Positions 1 through 9,832 of a DNA stretch of 9,832 nucleotides are shown here, piece after piece. The notes under the pieces are model-generated. The model saw only the letters and a program-made list of their open reading frames with translations. It ran no database searches and was not told the origin of the DNA. The stretch's first letter is position 1. Each line of letters begins with the position of its first letter. Position numbers and translations under genes: made by a program. Source of the DNA: Bacteroidales bacterium Bact_16 (GTDB taxonomy: Bacteria; Bacteroidota; Bacteroidia; Bacteroidales; UBA932); assembly GCA_001602885.1 (NCBI GenBank), contig LUZH01000246.1, positions 1-9,832 on the forward strand, in the 5' to 3' direction.

Positions 1-803
1 AAAGCCCCGGATTCGCCGGCTTCGAGAGCCGCCTGGACCACGGCGTCCCCTACATCAACGAGATCGGCTACATCGGCGAGAACTATGAGTTCCGCCGCTC
101 CGCCCTCTATGTCGACAACGACGACCCCGGCTTCGGCGCGTCCTACGACGACCACGCCGGCCAGATCATCGCCGGCAACACCTTCGACTATCCCTACATC
201 CACGGGCAGGCCCTCCTCCGCCTCGGCTACCCCTTCTTCTCGATGTCGCGAGACGCCTTCATCGACAATGACACGCCAGCCTTCGTGGTGGACCTGATCT
301 GCGGCAAGCAGGGGCGCACGCCCACGGGCCGCGGCGCCCTGCCCGACCGCTTCACCGTGTTCCCGAAGGCCCTGACCGACGCCCTGCGCACGGCCGTGGA
401 GCAGGGCTCCAACCTGCTGGTGAGCGGCGCCGCCATCGCCTCCGACAACGACGCCGAAGCGGCCGCCTTCGCCGAGCAGGTGCTCGGCTACAGGCTCGCC
501 AACGCCTTCGGCACCAACACCGGCTGCGTCGCCGACATGCCGTTCAGCGCGGACCTCAACGAGACCGTCTACTGCGTGGAGCGCCCCGACGGGCTCAAGC
601 CCGCGGGCGACGGCGCCCGGGTCTGGCTCCGCTACCCCGGCTCCGCCTACGCCGCGGCGGTCACCTACCGGACCGACACCTACCGGGCCGTCAGCCTCGG
701 CGTGCCGGTGGAGACGCTCCTGCGCGCGGCCGACCGGGAGTGGGTCCTCCGGCAGACGATGGAATTCCTGTACAACGGTAAAAAGCCCGCCAACCGCCGT
801 TAG
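1..803 (+). CDS. C-terminal part of a secreted xanthan lyase/golvesin-domain-like protein (5' end outside window)
   Basis: The frame is open from base 3 to the TAG at 801-803 (266 residues), so the ATG at 243 is internal and not the start. The residues before it (FESRLDHGVPYINEIGYIGE, then NDDPGFGASYDDHAGQ and GNTFDYPYIHGQALLRLGYP) belong to the same domain. The C-terminal half has LLVSGAAIASD, VYCVERPDGLKP, an RYPGSAYAAAVTY stretch and YRAVSLGVPVETL. From memory, this order occurs in large secreted Bacteroidales proteins annotated as xanthan lyase or golvesin C-terminal-domain protein, sometimes fused to amidase modules. It looks like a flavodoxin- or glutaminase-like alpha/beta domain. True lyase activity is not established, because the name is inherited annotation. 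The signal peptide and N-terminal domains lie outside the window. The stop overlaps the stop of the convergent epimerase gene by 4 bases. Coding status is near certain; the family is a moderate call. Confidence 0.6.
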   Translation, partial: SPGFAGFESRLDHGVPYINEIGYIGENYEFRRSALYVDNDDPGFGASYDDHAGQIIAGNTFDYPYIHGQALLRLGYPFFSMSRDAFIDNDTPAFVVDLICGKQGRTPTGRGALPDRFTVFPKALTDALRTAVEQGSNLLVSGAAIASDNDAEAAAFAEQVLGYRLANAFGTNTGCVADMPFSADLNETVYCVERPDGLKPAGDGARVWLRYPGSAYAAAVTYRTDTYRAVSLGVPVETLLRAADREWVLRQTMEFLYNGKKPANRR

Positions 804-1759
804 CGGAGCGGATTCAGATCAGAAAGATACCAGTCCACGAAGCGCCCGATGCCTTCGCGGAGCTTCACGCTCGGCTTGTAGCCCAGCTCCCGCTCCAGCT
901 TGCCGGTATCGGCATAGGTCTGATAGACGTCGCCCGGCTGCATCGGGAACATGACCTTGTCGGCCTCGCGGCCGAGGGCGCGTTCCATCTCGGAGATGAA
1001 ATCCATCAGCTTCACCGGGCTGCTGCAACCGATGTTGAAGACTTCGTGCCGGTCCGGCACGCGGTCCAGCACGCGCACCACCCCTTCGACGATGTCGTCG
1101 ATATAGGTGAAGTCGCGCAGCATGTCGCCGTGGTTGAAGACCTTGATGGGCTTGCCGGCGAGAATGGCCGAAGCGAACAGCATCGGCGACATGTCCGGAC
1201 GGCCCCACGGACCGTACACGGTGAAGAAACGCAGCCCCGTGGCCTTCAGGCCATAGAGATGGCAGTAGCAGCCGGCCATCAGCTCGTCGGCCTTCTTGGT
1301 GGCGGCATACAGGCTCACGGGATTGTCCACGCGGTCCTCCTCGCTGAAAGGCGTCTTCTCGTTGCCGCCGTACACGCTGCTGGAGCTGGCATAGACCAGA
1401 TGCCGCACCGGATAGTGGCGACAGCACTCCAGGATGTTCAGGAAGCCCACGACATTGCTGTCCACATAGGCCCAGGGATTCTCGACCGAATAGCGGACGC
1501 CGGCCTGGGCGGCCAGGTTGACCACGGCGTCGAAATGCTCCGCCGCGAACAGCGCCGGCAACGCCTCGCGGTCGGCGAGGTCCATCCGCACGAAGCGGAA
1601 CCTTTCGCTGTCGATCTGCGCCAGGCGCGCTTCCTTCAGGACGACGGGATAATAAGCATTGAGGTTGTCCAGGCCGACGACTTCATCGCCGCGTCCGAGC
1701 AGACGCTGAACCAGATGGAAGCCGATGAAGCCGGCTGCTCCCGTGACCAGGACCTTCAT
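800..1759 (-). CDS. NAD-dependent epimerase, UDP-glucuronate 4-epimerase type
   Basis: A complete extended SDR enzyme of 319 residues. The NAD-binding GxxGxxG (GAAGFIG) is at residues 7-13 and the acidic residue closing beta-2 is D31. LAAQAGVRYSVENPWAYVDSN at about 82-102 is the hallmark of UDP-glucuronate 4-epimerases. The catalytic serine region ASSSSVYG is at 124-131, YxxxK is Y151/K155, RFFTVYGPWGRPDM is at 177-190 and RDFTYIDDI at 215-223. The family converts UDP-glucuronate to UDP-galacturonate in the cytoplasm for surface polysaccharide; substrate here is inferred from similarity. It is slightly shorter than the usual 335-350 residues, apparently because a loop around residues 232-238 is trimmed. 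It starts 15 nt after the stop of the CapD-like gene, with no terminator or promoter between, so it is the last gene of the operon. Other NDP-hexose 4-epimerases are the main alternative. Confidence 0.88.
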   Translation of the reverse strand: MKVLVTGAAGFIGFHLVQRLLGRGDEVVGLDNLNAYYPVVLKEARLAQIDSERFRFVRMDLADREALPALFAAEHFDAVVNLAAQAGVRYSVENPWAYVDSNVVGFLNILECCRHYPVRHLVYASSSSVYGGNEKTPFSEEDRVDNPVSLYAATKKADELMAGCYCHLYGLKATGLRFFTVYGPWGRPDMSPMLFASAILAGKPIKVFNHGDMLRDFTYIDDIVEGVVRVLDRVPDRHEVFNIGCSSPVKLMDFISEMERALGREADKVMFPMQPGDVYQTYADTGKLERELGYKPSVKLREGIGRFVDWYLSDLNPLR

Positions 1760-1774
1760 AATGCCGCGTAGAGA

Positions 1775-3697
1775 TTATTTCTTGTCGAACGCCTCGAACT
1801 GCGAGTTGTTGGAGATGAACTCGGGGACGATCTCCTTCATCAGCTTGACCGTCTCGGGGATGCGCACTTCGTGGCTGAGGGCGGTCAGTTCGTCGGCGGC
1901 CTTGACGGCGTCGGCATAGTCATATTCGCGCACACGGGCGATGCGGATGCGGTCGTGCGAAGTCTCGTCGGTATTCTCCTTGGTGGAGAGGACCTCCTCG
2001 TAGAGCTTCTCGCCCGGACGCAGGCCGGTGTAGACGATCTCGATATCCTGGCCCGGCACCAGGCCGGCCAGTTCGATCATCCGGCGCGCCAGCGTGTCGA
2101 TCTTGACGGGCTGTCCCATGTCGAAGACGCAGATGCGGTTCTCCGTGGGGAGCGTCGCCGCCTCCATCACGAGCCGGCAGGCCTCGGGAATGGTCATGAA
2201 ATAGCGGGTGATATTCTTGTCGGTGACCGTGATGGGGCCGCCGCGCTCAATCTGTTCGCGGAAGCGCGGGATCACGGAGCCGTTGGAGCCGAGGACATTG
2301 CCGAAGCGCGTGGTCACGAACTTCGTGCGGCCCTTCACCTTGCCGGTCTCGATGGCCTTGCCCAGGCTCTGGACGTAGATCTCGGCCAGGCGCTTGGAGC
2401 AGCCCATGATGTTGGTCGGGTTGACGGCCTTGTCGGTGGAGATCATCACCATCTTCTCCACGTCGTACTGGATGCACTTGTCGGCCACGTTGCGCGTGCC
2501 GTCTACGTTGACGAGCACCGCCTCGCAGGGATTCTCCTCCATCAGGGGGACATGCTTGTAGGCAGCGGCGTGGAAGACGATCTGCGGCCGGTGCGAGCGG
2601 AACGCGAAGTCCAGGCGCGCAGGCTGGCGGACGTCGCCGATGATCGGCACGAACGACAGGTTGGGGAAACGCTCCTCCAGCTCGAGGCGGAGGTTGTGCA
2701 TCGGCGTCTCGGCGTTGTCGAACAGCACGAGCTTGCGGATGCCGAAACCGGCCAGCTGGCGGCAGAGTTCGGAACCGATCGAGCCGGCGCAGCCGGTGAC
2801 CAGCACCACCTTGTCCTTGAAGTTGGTCCGGATGGCGTCCATCGAAATCTTGATCTCCTCGCGGCCCAGCAGGTCCTCGATCTGGATCTTGCGGATCCGC
2901 AGACGCTCGGACGGAGCGCCCGTGATCTCGTCCACGGCCGGGGCGATGAGCACCTTGACGCCCTGCTCGGAGCAGAAGCGCACGAGGTGGTCCTGCTCGG
3001 CGGCGACGTCGCGCTCTTCCGTGAAGATGACGCCCCGCAGGGAAAGGGTGCGCACGGTCAGCGCGAACTCTTCCTGGCCCTCGAAATGGTAGACCGTCTT
3101 GTCGGCGATCAGGGTGTGCACGATCTGCTGGTTCTTGGAGATGAGGCCCACGACCTCGTAGCGGTGCGATCCGCGCAGGCGCGCAGCCGTGGCAATCGCC
3201 TTGTCGTTGGTGCCGTAGACCAGCACGCGGGAGCGCTTCTGGAGGTCGCGCACCCGCTGCTTGTAGGCGTCGAACACATAGATCATCAGCAGGCGGATGG
3301 CGCACAGGACCAGCACGGTGAAGGAACCGTCCAGGAGCAGCATCGTGACGACGCCGTCGTAGAAGAAGAAGCCGGTCAGCGTCATGGTCAGGCCCATGAT
3401 GGCCACCTTGCCGAACGACGCCACGAAGAAGAGCATCGTGTCCTTGAAGGAGAAGTGGCGGATGATGATGACGTAGGTCTTCAGGAGCCAGAACATCAGG
3501 AACGAGCCGCCCACGGAGGAGAGCCCCCAGAGGAGGTCGAACTGACGCTCGGCAACCGCATCAACCTGCAGGAAAAAAGCGAAGACGGCCACTGCGATAG
3601 AAACCAGCAGTGAAAGCGTCAAATCCATCCCTAAAACCCGTCCTTTGCCCAGGAACCTGGAGCTGTATTTATCTAGATTCTTACCGATGCCTAGCAT
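1775..3697 (-). CDS. Membrane-bound CapD/WbpM/PglF-type UDP-HexNAc 4,6-dehydratase
   Basis: A 640-residue protein from the ATG at 3697. Four hydrophobic helices lie at about 26-44, 57-79, 88-110 and 116-139. They are followed by a Rossmann-like CoA_binding_3-type domain (VLVYGTNDKAIATAARL near 159-174) and a C-terminal SDR domain (Polysacc_synt_2). The SDR has GCAGSIGSE at 302-310, AAAYKHVPLMEENP around 377-390, STDKAVNPTNIMGCSK at about 420-435 and LRPGEKLYEE at 559-568. The usual catalytic Tyr is replaced by Met (M431, K435), as known for the large WbpM/PglF homologues with an S-M-K triad. Family members convert UDP-GlcNAc to a UDP-4-keto-6-deoxy sugar at the inner membrane face, the first step to QuiNAc, FucNAc, bacillosamine or related sugars. 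The frame extends to a GTG at 3748, which would add 17 residues of AT-rich sequence overlapping a promoter-like box. The ATG at 3697 lies just before the conserved LDKYSSRF start and is preferred. Confidence 0.9.
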   Translation of the reverse strand: MLGIGKNLDKYSSRFLGKGRVLGMDLTLSLLVSIAVAVFAFFLQVDAVAERQFDLLWGLSSVGGSFLMFWLLKTYVIIIRHFSFKDTMLFFVASFGKVAIMGLTMTLTGFFFYDGVVTMLLLDGSFTVLVLCAIRLLMIYVFDAYKQRVRDLQKRSRVLVYGTNDKAIATAARLRGSHRYEVVGLISKNQQIVHTLIADKTVYHFEGQEEFALTVRTLSLRGVIFTEERDVAAEQDHLVRFCSEQGVKVLIAPAVDEITGAPSERLRIRKIQIEDLLGREEIKISMDAIRTNFKDKVVLVTGCAGSIGSELCRQLAGFGIRKLVLFDNAETPMHNLRLELEERFPNLSFVPIIGDVRQPARLDFAFRSHRPQIVFHAAAYKHVPLMEENPCEAVLVNVDGTRNVADKCIQYDVEKMVMISTDKAVNPTNIMGCSKRLAEIYVQSLGKAIETGKVKGRTKFVTTRFGNVLGSNGSVIPRFREQIERGGPITVTDKNITRYFMTIPEACRLVMEAATLPTENRICVFDMGQPVKIDTLARRMIELAGLVPGQDIEIVYTGLRPGEKLYEEVLSTKENTDETSHDRIRIARVREYDYADAVKAADELTALSHEVRIPETVKLMKEIVPEFISNNSQFEAFDKK

Positions 3698-3728
3698 GAG
3701 CGAGATTGGTTTCGTTTTATATAGTTTA

Positions 3729-3760
3729 CAAAAATAGCCATTTATCACACAAAACGAAAT
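3729..3760 (-). promoter_or_regulatory. Probable Bacteroidota promoter before the CapD-like gene
   Basis: In the AT-rich gap between the PAP2 gene and the CapD-like gene the minus strand reads TATTTTTG at 3736-3729, a perfect match to the Bacteroidota -7 box TAnnTTTG. The -33 element is weak: ATTT at 3760-3757 has the right spacing (20 nt), while the good TTTG at 3753-3750 is only 13 nt away. Initiation a few bases downstream would leave a leader of about 25 nt before the ATG at 3697. That fits this start and rules against the upstream GTG. It would give the last two operon genes a promoter of their own, in addition to readthrough from rfbB. Confidence 0.45.
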
Positions 3761-3776
3761 AGCTATAACGGAAATG

Positions 3777-4562
3777 TTAGAAATTAAAAGCCAATCCAGC
3801 GCAGAAAGTGCCGCTGACAGGGTCCACGCGCGGCGCGAACGACGCCTGCACCGCGGCGGAGCGGCGTCCGGAGCCCCAGTCGGTCGTGCGGATGTTCAAC
3901 CAGCGCTTGGTCGGCTCCAGCAGCCAGCCGCCGATGCGGGCCGTGAGGATCCCGAGGCCCGCCCCGAAGAGGCAGTCGCTCAGCCAGTGCCAGTCGTTGT
4001 AGTTGCGCATCACGGCCACGGTCGTGGCGATCAGATAGGCGGGAATGCCCCAATCCCAGCCGTATTCCATCCGCACCAGCTCGGCGCCGATGAACACCCA
4101 GTCGGTGTGACCCGAAGGGAACGAGCGGTTGTCCACGCCGTTCGGACGCGGGGAGTCGATGATCTCCTTGAAGCCCCAGGACAGCACGCCCAGGGCGGCG
4201 CAGCCGAGCGCGCCCTCGATCAAGCGGTCCACGAAGCCGTGCTCCGCCCGCGCGCCGGCCAGGCCGAGGCCGAGGTCCATCACGATGGGCACATACTGGA
4301 TGTAGTTGTCGAAATTGCGCTCCGGCCCGCCGGCGCGCCAGCAATTCTGGAACCAGTCGTTGACGGGCACGTCGATCGCCTGGTGGGCGAAGCAGTGGAT
4401 GCCGACGCCGGCGGCGACCAGCACGCCGGGCGTGATCAGCTCGCGCGCGTCGAACGCCGGCGCGCGGAAAGCGGCCGTGTCCACGCGGACAGCCATCTGG
4501 GCCCGGGCCTGCGGCCCGAAAAGCAGCGCAGCTGCAATCAGTGCAAGGAAAAATCGTCTCAT
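3777..4562 (-). CDS. Exported PAP2-family phosphatase
   Basis: A 261-residue protein starting at the ATG 4562-4560, which overlaps the rfbB stop as ATGA and implies translational coupling. Residues 1-22 (MRRFFLALIAAALLFGPQAR, then AQ) form a Sec signal peptide. All three PAP2 motifs are present: K132-x6-R139-P140, PSGH at 149-152, and R186-x5-H192-x3-D196, where the first residue (usually Ser) is M185. Hydrophobic stretches at about 43-57, 116-130, 173-185 and 197-210 are probably membrane helices. The last 30 residues lose the helical pattern and end in LAFNF, like an outer-membrane beta strand. The enzyme should hydrolyse a lipid or sugar phosphate on the periplasmic side. In this operon, undecaprenyl pyrophosphate recycling or lipid A dephosphorylation are reasonable inferences, but neither is shown. 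The same frame stays open upstream to 5066, but that part is antisense-type shadow of rfbB. Confidence 0.85.
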   Translation of the reverse strand: MRRFFLALIAAALLFGPQARAQMAVRVDTAAFRAPAFDARELITPGVLVAAGVGIHCFAHQAIDVPVNDWFQNCWRAGGPERNFDNYIQYVPIVMDLGLGLAGARAEHGFVDRLIEGALGCAALGVLSWGFKEIIDSPRPNGVDNRSFPSGHTDWVFIGAELVRMEYGWDWGIPAYLIATTVAVMRNYNDWHWLSDCLFGAGLGILTARIGGWLLEPTKRWLNIRTTDWGSGRRSAAVQASFAPRVDPVSGTFCAGLAFNF

Positions 4563-5632
4563 CGGCCCGCGTACATCTGTTCGTAATACTTCTGGTAGTC
4601 GCCGGAGGTGACATTGTCCAGCCACGCCTGGTTTTCGAGATACCAGCGGACCGTCTTCTCGATCCCCTCCTCGAACTGCAGGCTCGGCTCCCAGCCCAGC
4701 TCCTTCTGCAGCTTGCGGGAGTCGATGGCGTAGCGCAGGTCGTGTCCGGCGCGGTCGGTCACATAGGTGATCAGGTCCAGGTCGGCGCCCTCGGGGCGGC
4801 CCAGCAGGCGGTCGGTGACCTTGATGAGCAGCTTGACGATGTCGATGTTCTTCCACTCGTTGAAGCCGCCGATGTTGTAGGTCTCGGCGACCTGCCCGCG
4901 GTGGAAGATCGTGTCGATGGCGCGTGCGTGGTCCTCCACGTACAGCCAGTCGCGCACGTTCTCGCCCCTGCCGTAGACCGGCAGCGGTCTGCGGTGGCGG
5001 ATGTTGTTGATGAAGAGCGGGATGAGCTTCTCCGGGAACTGGTAGGGGCCGTAGTTGTTGGAGCAATTGGTCACCACCGTCGGCATCCCGTAGGTGTCGT
5101 GGAAGGCGCGCACGAAGTGGTCGCTGCCTGCCTTGGAGGCGCTGTAGGGGCTGTGCGGCTGGTATCTGGTCTGCTCCGTGAAGAGCGTGCCGTCCATCGC
5201 GAGCGCGCCGTACACCTCGTCGGTGCTGATATGGTAGAAGCGCTTGCCTTCGTATTTCTCAGGGAGAGACTCCCAATAGCATCTTGCGGCCTGCAGCAGG
5301 CTCAGCGTGCCCAGCACGTTGGTCCGGGCAAAAGTGAACGGATCCTTGATCGAGCGGTCGACGTGCGATTCGGCCGCCAGGTGGATGATGCCATCCACGC
5401 GCTCTTCCTGCATCAGTTTGGAAACGCCCTCGAAATCGCAGATGTCCATCCGGACAAAGCGGTAGTTGGGCTTGTCTTCGATGTCTTTCAGGTTCGCCAG
5501 GTTGCCGGCGTACGTCAGTTTGTCCAGGTTGATGATCTTGTAGGCGGGATACTTGTTCACAAACAGGCGGACGACATGGCTTCCGATGAAACCGGCTCCG
5601 CCCGTGACGATCAATGTCCTTGTGAAATTCAT
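4559..5632 (-). CDS. rfbB: dTDP-glucose 4,6-dehydratase
   Basis: A complete 357-residue RmlB. It has GGAGFIG (GxxGxxG, residues 11-17), the D38-KLTYAGN segment at beta-2, LAAESHVDRSI at 85-95 and STDEVYG at 136-142, including the T137-D138-E139 triad specific to the dehydratase. YSASK supplies Y163/K167, followed by NCSNNYGPYQFPEKLIP at 189-205 and RDWLYVEDH near 228-236. It converts dTDP-glucose to dTDP-4-keto-6-deoxyglucose in the cytoplasm, the branch point to L-rhamnose and other 6-deoxysugars. The rest of that pathway (rfbA, rfbC, rfbD) is not in the window. It is the first gene of the leftward operon, with a TAnnTTTG promoter 24-31 nt upstream of its ATG, and its TGA overlaps the start of the PAP2 gene. 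Confidence 0.95.
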   Translation of the reverse strand: MNFTRTLIVTGGAGFIGSHVVRLFVNKYPAYKIINLDKLTYAGNLANLKDIEDKPNYRFVRMDICDFEGVSKLMQEERVDGIIHLAAESHVDRSIKDPFTFARTNVLGTLSLLQAARCYWESLPEKYEGKRFYHISTDEVYGALAMDGTLFTEQTRYQPHSPYSASKAGSDHFVRAFHDTYGMPTVVTNCSNNYGPYQFPEKLIPLFINNIRHRRPLPVYGRGENVRDWLYVEDHARAIDTIFHRGQVAETYNIGGFNEWKNIDIVKLLIKVTDRLLGRPEGADLDLITYVTDRAGHDLRYAIDSRKLQKELGWEPSLQFEEGIEKTVRWYLENQAWLDNVTSGDYQKYYEQMYAGR

Positions 5633-5641
5633 AATCTCGTG

Positions 5642-5673
5642 TTGTTATTAGTCCCCAAAATTAGTTATTTTTG
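5642..5673 (+). promoter_or_regulatory. Promoter of the rnhA-pdxA operon
   Basis: The plus strand reads TATTTTTG at 5666-5673, an exact TAnnTTTG -7 box, with a TTG -33 element at 5642-5644 spaced by 21 nt. Transcription would start near 5680, giving a leader of about 20 nt before the rnhA ATG at 5700. No strong Shine-Dalgarno is visible, which is normal in this phylum. Confidence 0.6.
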
Positions 5674-5686
5674 CACTCACCTGCAA
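5656..5686 (-). promoter_or_regulatory. Promoter of the rfbB polysaccharide operon
   Basis: The minus strand reads TAATTTTG at 5663-5656, an exact TAnnTTTG -7 box. A TTG -33 element lies at 5686-5684, spaced by 20 nt. Transcription would start near 5650, about 18-20 nt before the rfbB ATG at 5632. It lies back to back with, and almost entirely overlaps, the rightward promoter of rnhA. Confidence 0.6.
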
Positions 5687-5699
5687 GGATGCGACTTTA

Positions 5700-6152
5700 A
5701 TGGCTACCACCAGACCCCCCATATTCCTCTACACCGACGGCGCGGCCAGCGGCAATCCCGGCCCCGGCGGCTACGGCGTGGTGCTCCGCTGCGGCGAGGT
5801 GAGCAAGGAGATGTCCGGGGGCTTCCGCCGCACCACCAACAACCGCATGGAGCTCCTGGCCGTCATCCGCGGCCTCGAGGCCATCCGCTGGCAGGGCGCC
5901 GAGGTGCACGTCTACAGCGACTCGACCTATGTCGTCAAGACCGTGACCGAAGGCTGGAAGCGCAAGAAGAACCAGGACCTGTGGGCGCAGTTCGACGCCG
6001 TCGCGGCCCGGTTCCGCCTGCAGTTCCACTGGATCAAGGGCCACGCCGGCCACCCCGAGAACGAGCGCTGCGACCGCCTCGCCGTCGCCGCCTACTCCCT
6101 GCCCGGCCTCCCGCCCGACGAGCAATACGAACAAAACGAAGCAACACAATAA
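5700..6152 (+). CDS. rnhA: Ribonuclease HI
   Basis: A complete 150-residue enzyme that cuts the RNA strand of RNA-DNA hybrids (R-loops, primers). The four carboxylates are present: D13 in [17 protein letters not shown]51 in [10 protein letters not shown]74 in VYSDSTYVV and D125 in the CDRLA motif. The catalytic-loop His is H115 in [15 protein letters not shown], as in E. coli RNase HI. The basic handle ([11 protein letters not shown], about 85-95) is present but shorter than in E. coli. The start is fixed by the short leader behind its promoter and the conserved IFLYTDG near the N-terminus. It is the first gene of a two-gene unit, and pdxA follows after 4 nt. Confidence 0.96.
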
Positions 6153-6156
6153 AGAT

Positions 6157-7248
6157 ATGCAAAACGGCAAAATCATCGTGGGCATCACCCAGGGCGATTC
6201 CAACGGCATCGGCTACGAGGTCATCATCAAGGCCCTCGCCGACCCGCGGATCCTCGAGCAGTTCACCCCCGTCATCTACGGCTCTTCCAAGCTCTTCAGC
6301 TTCTACCGCAAGACCATCCCCGAGGTGGAGCAGATGGACACCAACGCCATCAGCAGCGCCTCCGAGGCGCACGTCAAGCGCATCAATATCGTCAACTGCC
6401 TGCCGGAGAGCGCCTACGCCGAGCCCGGCCAGGCCACGGCCGAGTCGGCCAGCGGCGCGATCGCGTCGCTGGAGAAGGCCGTCGCCGAGCTCAAGGCCGG
6501 CCTGATCGACGTCCTCGTCACGGGCCCGATCAACAAGAAGGCCATGTCGCTCGAGGGCTTCGGCTTCCCCGGTCACACCGAATACATCCAGAACGCCTTC
6601 GGCGCCCCGGATTCGCTGATGTTCATGGTCAGCCACCGCCTGCGTCTGGCCGTCGTCACGGGGCACATTCCCCTCAAGGATGTGGCTAAGCAGATCACCG
6701 AAGAGCGCATCCTGAGCAAGCTCCGCCTGATCAACGACTCGCTCAAGCGCGACTTCGTGGTGGACCAGCCGCGCATCGCCGTGCTCAGCCTCAACCCGCA
6801 CAGCGGCGACGGCGGCCTGCTCGGCACCGAAGAGCAGGACATCATCATCCCCGCCATCAAGAAGGCCACCGACGAGGGCATCCTCGCCTTCGGCCCCTTC
6901 TCCCCCGACGGTTTCTTCGGCCTCAACCATTTCGAGAACTTCGACGCCACGCTCGCGATGTACCACGACCAGGGTCTCGCGCCCTTCAAGGCCCTCTCCT
7001 TCGAGGACGGCGTCAACTTCACCGCCGGCCTGCCGATGGTGCGCACCTCGCCCGACCACGGCACGGCCTTCGAGATGGCCGGCCGTGACGAGGCGGATCC
7101 CCGCTCGATGCGCGCCGCCATCTTCACGGCCATCGACATCTTCCGCAACCGCCAGCAGTGGGAGGAGCTCCAGGAGGGCAAGATGCCCGAGCGCTTCCTC
7201 AACAAGGAGAAGAAAAACAACGGCGGCGGCAAGCCGCAGATCGCATAA
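6157..7248 (+). CDS. pdxA: 4-hydroxythreonine-4-phosphate dehydrogenase
   Basis: A complete 363-residue PdxA, the NAD-dependent enzyme of the DXP-dependent vitamin B6 pathway that oxidises 4-phosphohydroxy-L-threonine to the precursor joined by PdxJ. The three metal-binding histidines are H170 (TGHIPLKDV), H215 (LNPHSGDGG) and H270 (YHDQGLAPFK). Their spacings of 45 and 55 match H166/H211/H266 of E. coli PdxA. GHTEYI at 139-144 and TGPINKKA at 122-129 are also typical. The N-terminal motif is GITQGDSNGIGYE, the form I associate with Bacteroidota, instead of the proteobacterial GDPAGIGPE. The C-terminus carries a low-complexity Lys/Asn/Gly tail (about 346-363). It is co-transcribed with rnhA, and its TAA lies at the edge of the terminator stem. 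Confidence 0.95.
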   Translation: MQNGKIIVGITQGDSNGIGYEVIIKALADPRILEQFTPVIYGSSKLFSFYRKTIPEVEQMDTNAISSASEAHVKRINIVNCLPESAYAEPGQATAESASGAIASLEKAVAELKAGLIDVLVTGPINKKAMSLEGFGFPGHTEYIQNAFGAPDSLMFMVSHRLRLAVVTGHIPLKDVAKQITEERILSKLRLINDSLKRDFVVDQPRIAVLSLNPHSGDGGLLGTEEQDIIIPAIKKATDEGILAFGPFSPDGFFGLNHFENFDATLAMYHDQGLAPFKALSFEDGVNFTAGLPMVRTSPDHGTAFEMAGRDEADPRSMRAAIFTAIDIFRNRQQWEELQEGKMPERFLNKEKKNNGGGKPQIA

Positions 7249-7284
7249 ATAAAAGCGGGCCTCGAACGGGGCCCGCTTTTATTT
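7247..7284. terminator. Bidirectional intrinsic terminator between pdxA and the nuclease gene
   Basis: A perfect 15-bp inverted repeat pairs 7247-7261 (AAATAAAAGCGGGCC) with 7270-7284 around an 8-nt loop (TCGAACGG). The core is GC-rich, and the A-rich left and T-rich right flanks provide a U tract in either direction. The pdxA stop (7246-7248) and the stop of the leftward nuclease frame (7284-7286) sit at the two ends of the stem, so the hairpin serves both convergent genes. Confidence 0.9.
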
Positions 7285-8378
7285 TACCAGAGCGATGCGC
7301 TCTGCCGCTCGGCGGCATCCTGCAGGTCAGGCGGCACGTTGGCGAAGAAGTCGAACCCCGCCCGCTCCTCGATCGCGTCGATCGTCGTGCGGAACTTGGC
7401 GTCGTTGTACTGCTCGCCCTTGTGGGTCTCGTTGGTGAACACGTACGCGACGCCCTTCGCGGCCGTCATCGCACCACTCCCGTCGAAGGAGCACTTCATC
7501 AGGAGCTTGTAGAAATGGCTCGGGATGGGCACGCCGCTCACCGTCTTCGAATTCTCATACAGCACGCCGACCACGACGTAGAGCGTGTCGCGGCCCGAAG
7601 GGGCGTTGCCCTTGACCGACTGCTCCAGGCTGTTCCAGACACCGTCGTTGAAGCCGGTCTGGTACTGGGGAGCCTGGTTGGTGTGGTAGAAGGTCGCCTT
7701 GTTGGCGTCCGTGCTGGCCTGGCGGTAGTTGGAAGCCACGAAATGGCCGCGGCTGTAGCCCGACACGCCGCCCTGCTGCCAGGACGAAGGGATGGCCGGG
7801 TCGTTCTTCCAGCCGTCGTTGCGGCCCACGCCGTTGTCCGGGTAGGCGTCCTTGTGCATCACGAAGGCGCTCCAGAGCGGGGCCATCTTGTTGCCGTCCA
7901 CCAGGCAGGTGTAGTTGCGTACGGTCTTGCTGCCGGACCTGTAGGTGTGCGTGACCACCTTCTGCATCGCGTTCGCCGTCTCGTGGTTGTACCACTTGTA
8001 GCCGTAACCGCTGAGTTCGTCGCCCGAGCCGTAGGTCGTGCCGGCCTTCAGGGAGATGGCCGGGATCTCGTAGCCGGACAGATAGGGCCGGTAGCCCCCC
8101 TGCCCCGCCGACGAGGCGGTCGTGAAGGACTTGACGGCGCCCTTGTATTCTTTGAGCTGACCGCCGTCCAGAACCTCTACATAAGCTTGATAGTAGTAGG
8201 TCGTGGAGGCCTCCAGGCTCGACAGGGTCGAGCTGAAGGTCTCCGCGGCGTTGGCGGAGCTGTTCAGGTGCGTCTGGTTCGAGAGTGCGGTGGACGACGT
8301 GCCCCAATAGAAGCCGTAGTCCCGCACATCGGACATGTTGGTGAAGCTACCGGAGAGGACTGCACTGGCGTTGGTCAC
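7284..8378 (-). CDS. Fibronectin-like domain plus DNA/RNA non-specific endonuclease (downstream half of a split gene)
   Basis: Numbered from the GTG at 8378 (364 residues). Residues 1-87 are a fibronectin III-like domain of the Bacteroidales kind (YGFYWGTSS, LEASTTYYYQAYVE, VKSFTT). Residues about 105-348 are a NucA/Serratia-type endonuclease: YSRGHFVAS with the catalytic H212, TNQAPQ with the likely Mg ligand N234, FNDGVWNSLE at 243-252 and AIEERAGFDFF at 335-345. The usual DRGH is SRGH here. Such enzymes cut DNA and RNA without sequence preference, usually outside the cytoplasm. This frame has no signal peptide. The GTG is not a convincing start, because the frame stays open to 8432 and reads a Gly-rich linker (LGGSGGTDPTVTTG) directly behind the in-frame TGA of the upstream domains. 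The first in-frame ATG (8336) would cut the fibronectin domain. It is best read as the 3' part of one surface nuclease gene: either a remnant, a sequence error or translated by readthrough. Confidence 0.8.
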   Translation of the reverse strand: MTNASAVLSGSFTNMSDVRDYGFYWGTSSTALSNQTHLNSSANAAETFSSTLSSLEASTTYYYQAYVEVLDGGQLKEYKGAVKSFTTASSAGQGGYRPYLSGYEIPAISLKAGTTYGSGDELSGYGYKWYNHETANAMQKVVTHTYRSGSKTVRNYTCLVDGNKMAPLWSAFVMHKDAYPDNGVGRNDGWKNDPAIPSSWQQGGVSGYSRGHFVASNYRQASTDANKATFYHTNQAPQYQTGFNDGVWNSLEQSVKGNAPSGRDTLYVVVGVLYENSKTVSGVPIPSHFYKLLMKCSFDGSGAMTAAKGVAYVFTNETHKGEQYNDAKFRTTIDAIEERAGFDFFANVPPDLQDAAERQSASLW

Positions 8379-8432
8379 GGAGCTGGCCGCTCCCGTCGTG
8401 ACTGTCGGGTCAGTGCCTCCGGACCCACCCAG

Positions 8433-8435
8433 TCA
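8433..8435 (-). other. In-frame TGA splitting the surface protein from its nuclease domain
   Basis: The minus strand reads TAC TAC TGA CTG GGT GGG TCC GGA. Reading through gives YY-stop-LGGSGGTDPTVTTG, then the fibronectin domain, without frame change. The paralogous linker upstream in the same protein reads YYGEGGGTG, so a Gly codon GGA turned TGA by one base is a simple origin. TGA is a genuine stop elsewhere in the window (rfbB), and Trp is encoded by TGG, so recoding of TGA is not general. TGA followed by C is a context known to be leaky. Confidence 0.75.
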
Positions 8436-9832
8436 GTAGTATACCTTGATCTCGTCGATATAGGTGGCACCACCCTCGACGATCAGTTTGAACTGCTTGA
8501 CGCTGCTGCCTTCGGCGAAGTTGATCGTCACCTTGGCGCCCTTGTCCATGCCGGTGCGGACGCAGCCATACTCGTTGGCCCACTCCGTTTCGCCATACAG
8601 GATATCCTTGCCGTTCGACTGCCCGGTCGGAAGCACCGTCTCGGGCGGCACGGCGTGCAGCGTGCGGTCGGCAAGCGTGACGGACGCGTCGCTGGTAATC
8701 GTCACCTCCACGCTCTTGATCGCGGACGTGAAGGTCGGAGAAGTGATGTACGCGCCCTTCTTGTTGCGGAGCTGCAGGTATTTCACGCCGTTCGCGTGCT
8801 TGGCGAAATTGCCCGTCCAGGTGCCGGAGGCGCTGGAGATGGTGCCGTCCCGGTAGGAGGGATTGTCACCCGTAATCTCAGCGTCCACGGTAGCAGCCTG
8901 GATCTCGGCGAGGGTCAGCACGGCGGAGTCGCCGCCCGTGCCACCGCCGCCGGCGGTGACCGTCACGGAGACGGTCTTGGAGGCGGCCGTGAAGGCGCCC
9001 TCGACCGCGGCGACGGCCACGGTGATCGTGGCGGTGCCGGCGGCAAGGGCGGTGACCTTACCGTTGGCGTCGACCGTCGCGACGGAGGCTTTGTCGACGC
9101 TGAAGGTCGGCGTGGCCGTGGAGTTGGTGGTGGCGGTGAGCGTCGCGGTCTCGCCGGCCGTCAGGTTCAGCGAAGCCGGGCTGACGGTCAGCGTGGCCGT
9201 CGTCGGCTGGTTGCCCGTGCCGCCGCCTTCGCCGTAGTAGGCGACGACCTTCTGCAGGCGCCAGTGGCCGGTGCCCGTGGCACGGGTCAGTTTCACGGAC
9301 TTGGCCGAACCGGTCCAGGTCTGCGTGGCGAGGTCGTAGGAGCCCGAATCCACGCTGCCGAAGGTAGCTTCATCCGGGATGAAGGTCTTGACCGTCTCGC
9401 CGTCCTTCTGCTCGGTCGTGTCGAAAGTGTATTCGATCTTGACAATCGTCTGCTCGGAAGAGACCGTCACCCAGCCGTCGCCGTAGATGCGCATGCCGGA
9501 GCCGGTCGTATAGTACTTGCCGTCATTGCTGCCGGCGCCGAACTGCACGGACATATTGCCCTGCACGAACGGATCCTTGTACTGCGTGCCGTTCTCCAGG
9601 TTGAGGTCGGCGAAGACGATCGTGTCGCTGGTGGGTGCGGGCGGGACATCGATGCCCTCCACCTTGATGGGGAGCTCGAAGGTCTGGGCCGCATAGTCGG
9701 TCTTGGTGTAGGCCGGGGTGGAGATGGTCACCGTGGCCGTGCCGTTGCTCTTCGGGGTGATCAGGACGGCGCCGTCCTTGACCTCCGCCGTGGCGACGGC
9801 GGTGTCGCTGGACGTGGCCGTGACCTTGGCGC
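8433..9832 (-). CDS. Ig-like multidomain surface protein, upstream half of the split nuclease gene (5' end outside window)
   Basis: The frame is open to the right window edge (465 residues visible). The GTG at 9731 is internal, since 33 codons before it continue an Ig-like strand pattern (AKVTATSSDTAVATAEVKDG). Numbered from 9731: about 36-166 is a beta-sandwich module that ends WRLQKVVAYY; 167-177 is a Gly-rich linker; 178-258 is a BIG2-type bacterial Ig-like domain (LTVSPASLNLTAGETATLT, VATVDANGKVTALAAGTATIT); 259-268 is a second Gly linker; about 270-432 is another beta-sandwich that ends YIDEIKVYY directly at the TGA. Composition is rich in Thr, Gly and Ala and poor in Cys, as in secreted proteins. 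Both non-BIG2 modules end in a hydrophobic-x-YY strand followed by a Gly linker, suggesting duplication. I infer a spacer or binding function on the cell surface; the ligand is unknown. The signal peptide or lipobox must be outside the window. Confidence 0.82.
   Translation of the reverse strand, partial: AKVTATSSDTAVATAEVKDGAVLITPKSNGTATVTISTPAYTKTDYAAQTFELPIKVEGIDVPPAPTSDTIVFADLNLENGTQYKDPFVQGNMSVQFGAGSNDGKYYTTGSGMRIYGDGWVTVSSEQTIVKIEYTFDTTEQKDGETVKTFIPDEATFGSVDSGSYDLATQTWTGSAKSVKLTRATGTGHWRLQKVVAYYGEGGGTGNQPTTATLTVSPASLNLTAGETATLTATTNSTATPTFSVDKASVATVDANGKVTALAAGTATITVAVAAVEGAFTAASKTVSVTVTAGGGGTGGDSAVLTLAEIQAATVDAEITGDNPSYRDGTISSASGTWTGNFAKHANGVKYLQLRNKKGAYITSPTFTSAIKSVEVTITSDASVTLADRTLHAVPPETVLPTGQSNGKDILYGETEWANEYGCVRTGMDKGAKVTINFAEGSSVKQFKLIVEGGATYIDEIKVYY

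What the first reader, a model, noticed from the sequence alone, without database searches (positions are those of the whole stretch)
7284..9832. One surface nuclease split by a single in-frame TGA
The Ig-like half (8433-9832) and the fibronectin-nuclease half (7284-8432) lie in the same reading frame, separated only by TGA at 8433-8435 inside a Gly-rich linker. The nuclease half has no signal peptide, no plausible start codon that keeps its fibronectin domain intact, and no TAnnTTTG box just upstream. Its catalytic motifs are nevertheless mostly conserved, and there is no second disabling mutation between 7284 and 8432. That suggests a very recent mutation, a sequencing or assembly error, or a stop that is read through so that a small fraction of the surface protein carries a nuclease.
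Basis: partly seen in the sequence, partly recalled or inferred. Interest (0 to 1): 0.7.

Follow-up and report, generated by a model that had tools for sequence, protein, structure and literature searches.

The report
Structured UGA readthrough arms surface lipoproteins
In a genus of rumen bacteria, many different surface proteins end at a UGA stop that is followed, in frame, by a nuclease module and a conserved folded RNA, which suggests that ribosomes are programmed to ignore the stop now and then; if true, it is a virus-like decoding trick in ordinary bacterial genes.

Summary
In detail: one in-frame TGA (8433-8435, minus strand) separates a surface protein's C-terminus from an FN3-like/Endonuclease_NS module. 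It is neither an error nor a fresh mutation. The junction recurs in related rumen Bacteroidales: 68 found, 67 unique, with no genuine TAA or TAG junction seen. Of five genomes with the gene directly beside pdxA, four have the TGA and one is uninterrupted. Upstream C-termini differ (47 clusters among 55), but the module keeps a Gly-rich linker, purifying selection and covarying RNA hairpins. In the 120 nt after the TGA, 49 of 55 fold more stably than synonymous recodings (41 of 46 without rows found only by the hairpin model), against 8 of 69 stop-less homologues. No TGA is followed by T (0 of 67, against 214 of 698 in G001). Selenocysteine, code change and suppressor tRNA are unsupported. Best explanation: programmed UGA readthrough, stimulated by 3' RNA structure, giving a minority of surface lipoproteins a nuclease. 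Translation past the stop was not measured, and the window's own RNA is only marginal (p 0.08).

The parts
8436..9832 (-). C-terminal part (465 residues, start outside the window) of a surface protein with a Big_2 Ig-like domain, ending ...YIDEIKVYY
   Evidence: upstream proteins of relatives that are covered to their start show a lipoprotein-type signal by my pattern (15 of 15 labelled rows; sequences)
8433..8435 (-). In-frame TGA, proposed readthrough codon (followed by CTG)
8352..8425 (-). Proposed readthrough-stimulating RNA: long imperfect stem-loop, first pair 7 nt after the UGA; helices 8423-8425/8352-8354, 8418-8420/8357-8359, 8411-8416/8362-8367, 8406-8407/8369-8370, 8398-8403/8373-8378, 8389-8393/8379-8383
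   Evidence: alignment A5 of five TGA genes: 95.2% of cells paired, three pairs with changes on both sides, 14 of 500 shuffles reach the number of double-change cells; the window alone is marginal, z -1.59, p 0.08
8406..8432 (-). Gly-rich linker LGGSGGTDP encoded directly after the TGA, no start codon
8127..8405 (-). Fibronectin-type-III-like domain (residues about 10-102 of the downstream half)
7329..7961 (-). Endonuclease_NS (PF01223) domain; RGH motif at 7743-7751
7284..7286 (-). TAA that ends the nuclease frame
7249..7283 (.). Hairpin with T-runs on both strands between pdxA and the nuclease gene, a likely shared terminator of the two convergent genes
   Evidence: read; not scored with a tool

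Best explanation
The two halves are one translation unit. Most ribosomes stop at the UGA and make a complete surface lipoprotein. A minority decode the UGA with a near-cognate tRNA (probably tRNA-Trp CCA, inferred), helped by a weak +4 base and by RNA hairpins that begin 6-7 nt downstream. They then make a C-terminally extended lipoprotein carrying a Gly-rich linker, FN3-like domain(s) and a DNA/RNA non-specific endonuclease. Export of the nuclease would depend on the lipoprotein signal of the upstream half. The TGA + structured linker + nuclease unit behaves as a cassette found behind many different surface proteins of the genus. Shown: position, frame, TGA-only use in the junctions seen, recurrence, purifying selection, RNA covariation and its strong association with TGA-bearing genes. 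Inferred: that readthrough occurs, how much, which residue is inserted, and that the RNA is the stimulator.
For: (1) 55 junctions among 143 distinct nuclease rows in hand plus 13 of 20 further loci: 68, 67 unique, no genuine TAA or TAG junction; in G001, TGA is 893 of 2886 scored ORF ends. (2) Upstream last 40 residues form 47 clusters among 55, so this is not one inherited accident; rows whose upstream frame reaches its start show a lipoprotein-type signal by my pattern, 15 of 15 labelled rows. (3) An ATG within 20 codons of the TGA in 0 of 55; nuclease parts under purifying selection, dN/dS 0.154-0.454 in the eight of nine pairs that could be computed. (4) RNA: the 120 nt after the TGA are more stable than synonymous resampling at p<=0.05 in 49 of 55 (mean z -3.15) against 8 of 69 stop-less homologues; without the nine rows found only through hairpin model R1 it is 41 of 46. 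Upstream 48-nt windows show no excess (z about +0.4). Covariation: A3 (11 rows, all gathered by protein search) 100% paired with 15 double-change cells; A4 (39 rows) 41 double-change cells; 0 of 500 shuffles reach either. Three A4 pairs change type yet pair in 39 of 39. G-U exceeds A-C at paired columns (55 v 17 in A4), as expected for RNA of the coding strand. (5) +4 base A45 C14 G8 T0 of 67, against T 214 of 698 TGA stops in G001 (Fisher 1.8e-10). (6) One relative, G001, has the gene beside pdxA uninterrupted, so the fused architecture exists as a protein-coding frame.
Against: No protein, ribosome-profiling or reporter data. The window's own 120 nt are only marginal (z -1.59, p 0.08), as are five other TGA rows of 55; eight of 69 stop-less controls are significant too. 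The outer pairs of the long hairpin fail in 14 to 19 of 39 rows at four of six outer positions, and the 7-bp hairpin does not vary in A3, so it says nothing there. Rows are related, so p values overstate independence. In E. coli reporters, predicted mRNA structure did not correlate with readthrough, and an older study cited there found that C as well as T after the stop favours termination (PMC11126739, section on sequence context read); C is the +4 base in 14 of 67 here, the window included. Two loci, L115 and L151, have the TGA but an indel beside it; L150 has a second stop 85 codons upstream; L144 stops 73 codons into the module.
Confidence: 0.8

Rival explanations
1. Two separate genes: the nuclease is translated on its own by termination-reinitiation at a non-ATG codon, and the hairpins serve mRNA stability or processing.
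For: Bacterial operons are full of adjacent in-frame genes (general knowledge); a GTG/TTG lies within 20 codons in 19 of 55. Stand-alone nuclease homologues with their own lipoprotein-type signal exist, 39 of 143 rows.
Against: Of 57 rows with the linker directly after a TGA, 55 are in frame with the upstream protein and the other two, L115 and L151, have an indel beside the TGA. No ATG in the linker; no signal found on the nuclease half, and a non-specific nuclease left in the cytoplasm would be harmful (general knowledge). The linker continues the polypeptide, and 30 rows classed by length as stop-less fusions exist. TAA and TAG would serve equally but were not seen.
Confidence: 0.1
2. Decaying or recently broken gene, or a sequencing/assembly error.
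For: Single stop in an otherwise open frame; an uninterrupted gene at the same place in G001.
Against: Same TGA in the gene beside pdxA in three other genomes and in 67 unique junctions; dN/dS 0.16-0.42 for the window's nuclease part against four TGA relatives; covarying RNA tied to the TGA.
Confidence: 0.02
3. UGA is a sense codon here: selenocysteine, a UCA suppressor tRNA, or a reassigned code.
For: UGA in every junction seen; an RNA hairpin follows, as in a bacterial SECIS.
Against: selB above cut-off in 0 of 61 relatives, tRNA-Sec above cut-off in 0 of 37 same-genus genomes, many of them incomplete; Rfam found no SECIS in 10 loci; G001 (95% complete) has 45 tRNAs, Trp only CCA, none UCA; prfB above cut-off in 6 of 6 genomes; TGA ends 893 of 2886 scored ORFs in G001.
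Confidence: 0.03
4. The hairpins are DNA recombination or cassette-exchange sites that happen to follow the stop; the nuclease module is shuffled as DNA and expression is incidental.
For: The same module sits behind many upstream proteins (47 clusters of 55); inverted repeats can be recombination sites.
Against: Wobble pairs favour the coding strand (G-U 55, A-C 17 in A4); most stop-less homologues of the same module lack the structure (61 of 69 not significant); the hairpin apex lies 60-87 nt after the TGA in the 41 of 55 rows where the motif was found.
Confidence: 0.05

Closest known systems
Viral 'type II' UGA readthrough
   Same: UGA, in many cases a stem-loop about 6-12 nt downstream (PMC11166343 passages); in alphaviruses a conserved stem loop within about 150 nt raises UGA readthrough up to 10-fold and yields the polymerase as a fusion (PMC8310308 passages).
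   Different: There the 3'-adjacent bases are generally CGG or CUA; here none of 67 has these. Bacterial chromosome, not virus; several different hairpin classes.
Gammaretroviral gag-pol readthrough (UAG, 8-nt spacer, pseudoknot)
   Same: Short spacer then compact RNA; two isoforms in a set ratio (PMC8310308 passages).
   Different: UAG and a pseudoknot; here UGA and hairpins, pseudoknot not tested.
CS3 pili amber codon of enterotoxigenic E. coli
   Same: Readthrough in a bacterial surface-structure gene; PMC1914089 (discussion section read) cites one experimentally confirmed prokaryotic case with a canonical residue, from a pathogenic E. coli. That this is the CS3 case is my inference from the search listing plus recall.
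   Different: UAG depending on a suppressor (recalled, from no call); no conserved structured RNA known to me.
Bacterial selenoprotein recoding (SECIS)
   Same: UGA with a downstream hairpin (recalled).
   Different: No selB or tRNA-Sec over cut-off in the same-genus genomes searched; stop lies in a linker.
In-frame stops in prokaryotic genes (Belinky et al. 2021, PMC7918605)
   Same: In-frame stops in bacterial genes, some evolutionarily conserved (search listing and passages).
   Different: That survey regards many as short-lived (passages); its main text has no occurrence of 'secondary structure' or 'Bacteroid'.

Membership tests
Programmed stop-codon readthrough (general) | In-frame stop followed by a conserved, selected coding extension without its own start | tested here: met
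   (GTG/TTG within 20 codons in 19 of 55 leaves a small doubt)
Programmed stop-codon readthrough (general) | Stop type and position conserved across genomes | tested here: met
   67 unique junctions, TGA; directly beside pdxA in four of five genomes
Programmed stop-codon readthrough (general) | Extended protein actually made | not testable with these tools
   needs proteomics or reporters
Viral type II readthrough | UGA with a stem-loop about 6-12 nt downstream | tested here: met
   first scored pair 7 nt after UGA in A3 and A5; in the second class (A2) the first predicted pair is 10 nt after UGA
Viral type II readthrough | 3'-adjacent CGG or CUA | tested here: not met
   none of 67; therefore it works like type II but is not filed as a member
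Selenoprotein | SelB and tRNA-Sec in the genome | tested here: not met
   0 of 61 and 0 of 37 same-genus genomes over cut-off; own assembly not held
UGA code reassignment | tRNA with UCA anticodon, loss of RF2, UGA absent as stop | tested here: not met
   G001; six genomes; not the window's own genome
DNA/RNA non-specific endonuclease (PF01223) | Domain score above cut-off and catalytic RGH / Asn region | tested here: met
   127 bits against cut-off 23; alignment to NucA 2o3b/1zm8; the roles of the residues are recalled
Pseudogene | Relaxed selection or further disabling changes | tested here: not met
   no second stop; dN/dS 0.16-0.42 for four pairs with the window

The most novel reading that the evidence does not exclude
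A bacterial genus has evolved a portable, structured UGA-readthrough cassette: a stop codon, two or three covarying hairpins and a nuclease module, joined to dozens of different surface lipoproteins so that a set minority of each carries a nuclease, possibly tuned by growth conditions. It would be a family-wide, RNA-programmed readthrough system with a standard amino acid in cellular bacterial genes.
Probability: 0.72. Interest if true: 0.93.

Novelty: new variant of a known kind. Interest (0 to 1): 0.87.

Why it matters
Readthrough with canonical amino acids has been called quite rare in prokaryotes; a 2007 genome survey (PMC1914089, discussion section read) found almost no candidates. It argued that such stops should lie outside domains, such as in a linker, beyond the reach of its method, and may act as a switch between short and long isoforms as in viruses. 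This family is what that paper said would be missed. It also gives dozens of natural variants with which to ask how mRNA structure weakens RF2 termination. Standard gene calling would split such genes in two and hide the nuclease's export route (inference).

Tried and rejected
Recent mutation or error: rejected by recurrence. Selenocysteine, suppressor tRNA, code change: no support. Genome-wide use of linker UGAs: in G001 (whole assembly scanned) 16 start-less in-frame extensions passed the thresholds (10 TAG, 4 TAA, 2 TGA); only C1:502681, the nuclease paralogue, looks like a linker, and I judged the others by eye as next genes with GTG/TTG starts or spurious. Other C-terminal modules behind the element: none seen; of 30 loci of hairpin model R1, 23 could be read with my pattern and by eye all show the FN3/nuclease module, one (L144) stopping after 73 codons. 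Rfam: no relevant match (10 loci). Looking for upstream paralogues ending normally: of 8 matches, two ended within 6 residues of the domain end, one TGA (the nuclease gene itself) and one TAA; uninformative. 4-bp anticodon-stem tRNA-Trp idea (PMC13092985 passages): G001's tRNA-Trp folds in ARAGORN with five anticodon-stem pairs, the top one G-U; not pursued. No fold prediction, proteome-wide homologue search or promoter scan was run.

Sampling limits: the 143 rows are not a random sample; some loci were fetched because their open frame was short or because the hairpin model R1 found them, so 55 of 143 is not a frequency. Nine of the 55 TGA rows came only through R1 (my comparison of the lists; names checked); eight of those nine are among the 49 significant rows, leaving 41 of 46.

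Rows dropped or corrected: L093 was labelled TGA-split but has a long open frame of its own and was dropped; L150 was labelled 'other' because of a second stop 85 codons upstream and was added; the two TAA-split rows (L286, own signal missed by my pattern; L092, unrelated frame) were not counted. Of 20 extra loci, 13 had the TGA, L310 is a partial copy without it, three had no hairpin motif by my pattern and three gave no readable frame. Searches took the best match of a strand for every control row, so one control row (L068) was the TGA gene itself; one search repeats the test with each match's own frame and supersedes both. In one search only 31 of 69 control windows are anchored at the FN3 motif (mean z -0.47, 6 significant); 17 are placed by query offset and 21 by distance from the C-terminus. 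The tree (FastTree, 124 rows) still holds the mis-assigned L068 row; it needs 20 changes between TGA and no TGA, 13 forced by well supported branches.
Full report
WHAT IS THERE. On the minus strand the frame from 9830 down to 7284 is open except for one TGA at 8433-8435. Upstream of it lies the C-terminal part of a surface protein with a Big_2 domain; downstream a 382-residue half with a Gly-rich linker, an FN3-like domain and an Endonuclease_NS domain (127 bits, cut-off 23). The nuclease aligns over residues 174-376 with NucA of known structure, including the RGH, TNxxPQ and LE stretches. The first ATG after the TGA is codon 33. The window's own assembly is not held; the nearest genome, G001, shares 20% of sampled 31-letter words. 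Named relatives are mostly rumen Bacteroidales metagenome-assembled genomes.

THE STOP IS OLD AND SHARED. Directly beside pdxA, the nuclease gene has the TGA in the window, L031/L069, L116/L032 and L002, while G001 (PdxA 99.1% identical) has an uninterrupted gene. In L033 a TGA copy lies 4.2 kb from pdxA. In the wider genus I classified 143 distinct nuclease-matching rows among the loci in hand: 55 stop-split with TGA after two corrections, 30 long stop-less rows and 39 short rows with their own lipoprotein-type signal, 11 cut by a contig edge, the rest other. This is not a random sample (see Tried and rejected). No genuine TAA or TAG junction was found. A second hairpin model (R2) led to 20 more loci, 13 of which show the same in-frame TGA, six unreadable and one a partial copy without it; together 68 junctions, 67 unique. 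In G001, TGA is 893 of 2886 scored ORF ends.

MANY UPSTREAM PROTEINS, ONE MODULE. The last 40 upstream residues fall into 47 clusters at 40% ungapped identity among 55 junctions. Where the upstream frame reaches its start it shows a lipoprotein-type signal by my pattern, 15 of 15 labelled rows; sequences are. Domain matches in the upstream proteins scanned (8, 6) include CHB_HEX_C, InlB-type repeats and choice-of-anchor J above cut-off, BACON and Big_3 below it. The downstream part is a linker, one or more FN3-like domains (absent in a few) and the nuclease. An ATG lies within 20 codons of the TGA in 0 of 55; a GTG or TTG does in 19. The nuclease part is under purifying selection: dN/dS 0.154 to 0.454 in eight pairs; in a ninth dS was saturated.

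A STRUCTURED RNA FOLLOWS THE STOP. Folding shows recurrent hairpins (the output was cut in the middle). In the commonest class the UGA is followed by 6-7 nt, a 7-bp hairpin, a 4-bp hairpin and a hairpin of up to 13 bp whose apex motif lies 60-87 nt after the stop (41 of 55 rows). In A3 (11 rows) the 7-bp hairpin does not vary; the 4-bp hairpin pairs in all rows and three of its four pairs change on both sides (15 cells; 0 of 500 shuffles). The long hairpin (A4, 39 rows) is 86.6% paired with 41 double-change cells (0 of 500 shuffles); three inner pairs change type yet pair in 39 of 39, while four of the six outer pairs fail in 14-19 rows. By inspection these changes alter residues around the GATL motif in step, so pairing seems to have been kept at the cost of protein sequence. 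A second class has one long hairpin (A2, six rows, five of 11 pairs with compensatory changes). The window belongs to a third class (A5, five rows): 95.2% of cells paired, three pairs with double changes, 14 of 500 shuffles reaching the observed number of such cells; this class is small and its support weaker.

CONTROL AGAINST STOP-LESS HOMOLOGUES. Keeping the protein and resampling synonymous codons 200 times, the 120 nt after the TGA are more stable at p<=0.05 in 49 of 55 (mean z -3.15), against 5 of 30 long stop-less rows (mean z -0.23) and 3 of 39 short ones (mean z -0.19); Mann-Whitney p 1.5e-18 ignoring relatedness. Leaving out the nine rows found only through hairpin model R1, it is 41 of 46. 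The stop-less G001 gene beside pdxA keeps a residue of structure (z -2.14). Not significant among TGA rows: the window (z -1.59, p 0.08), one of the two L033 genes, L103, L143, L020 and L145. Windows of 48 nt upstream of the TGA show no excess structure (z about +0.4, 53 rows). At paired columns G-U cells outnumber A-C cells (A4 55 v 17; A5 6 v 2; A3 1 v 0), as expected if the coding-strand RNA is what folds.

THE CONTEXT IS WEAK FOR TERMINATION. The base after the TGA is A in 45, C in 14, G in 8 and T in none of 67, while 214 of 698 TGA stops in G001 are followed by T (Fisher p 1.8e-10). In E. coli reporters T after the stop improved termination, G lowered it, and TGA was almost always read as Trp (PMC11126739, section read). 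The same section reports no correlation between predicted mRNA structure and readthrough for inserted stops in E. coli, which counts against assuming that any hairpin will do, and cites an older study in which C as well as T favoured termination.

ALTERNATIVES. SelB: 0 of 61 relatives over the curated cut-off. tRNA-Sec: 0 of 37 same-genus genomes over it (2 of 61 in all, both other families). G001 has 45 tRNAs, Trp CCA only. RF2 is over cut-off in 6 of 6 genomes. Separate translation of the nuclease is not excluded but leaves the constant frame, the TGA-only rule, the missing signal peptide and the TGA-bound RNA unexplained.

DISTRIBUTION. Model R1 matched 44 of 300 genus genomes at E 1e-3, R2 62 of 300 at E 1e-5, 69 genomes in union. 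In an order-level sample of 295, R2 matched at E 1e-4 only G001 and two weak places (27.0 and 26.4 bits, not examined); one further same-genus genome and two same-family genomes had none. As far as sampled, the element looks confined to this genus. A FastTree tree of 124 nuclease parts needs 20 changes between TGA and no TGA, 13 forced by well supported branches: repeated gain or loss, or reshuffling.

LITERATURE. The listings (held open-access library; each shows only the top papers) did not show a structured readthrough element in a cellular bacterial gene; subscription papers and bioRxiv are not held. PMC1914089 (discussion section) calls prokaryotic readthrough with canonical residues quite rare and expects it outside domains, such as in linkers, as an isoform switch. 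Viral type II signals are UGA plus, in many cases, a stem-loop about 6-12 nt away (PMC11166343 passages).

VERDICT. A conserved, RNA-structured UGA junction between surface lipoproteins and a nuclease module is shown; programmed readthrough is its best explanation and awaits a reporter or mass-spectrometry test.

Noticed in passing
G001:C1:502681 (L068) and 495339 (L067): G001 carries two members about 6 kb apart: a stop-less gene beside pdxA and a paralogue with the TGA and the second hairpin class plus the long hairpin.
   Followed up: yes
L033:1440-2555 and L033:9977-11170: Two TGA-split nuclease genes within about 10 kb on one contig, with different upstream proteins and different hairpin classes.
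   Followed up: partly
L115 and L151: TGA junctions with an indel right beside the stop, so upstream and nuclease are in different frames; assembly error, pseudogene or something else.
   Followed up: partly
L150 (G213:C13): TGA junction whose upstream frame holds a second stop 85 codons further upstream.
   Followed up: no
L310 (G126:C120:7000-7900): Partial copy of the linker/FN3 region with the hairpin but no TGA, near an intact TGA copy (L311); looks like a decayed duplicate.
   Followed up: no
G233:C76:1753 and 6740; G188:C79:1299 and 4435: Two elements on one contig in opposite orientation a few kb apart, suggesting inverted duplicates.
   Followed up: no
window 800-7248: Neighbouring genes look like sugar-nucleotide and polysaccharide functions (epimerase-type, CapD-like, PAP2-type, RfbB-like), then RNase HI and PdxA; names from reading the translations, not from a search.
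   Followed up: no
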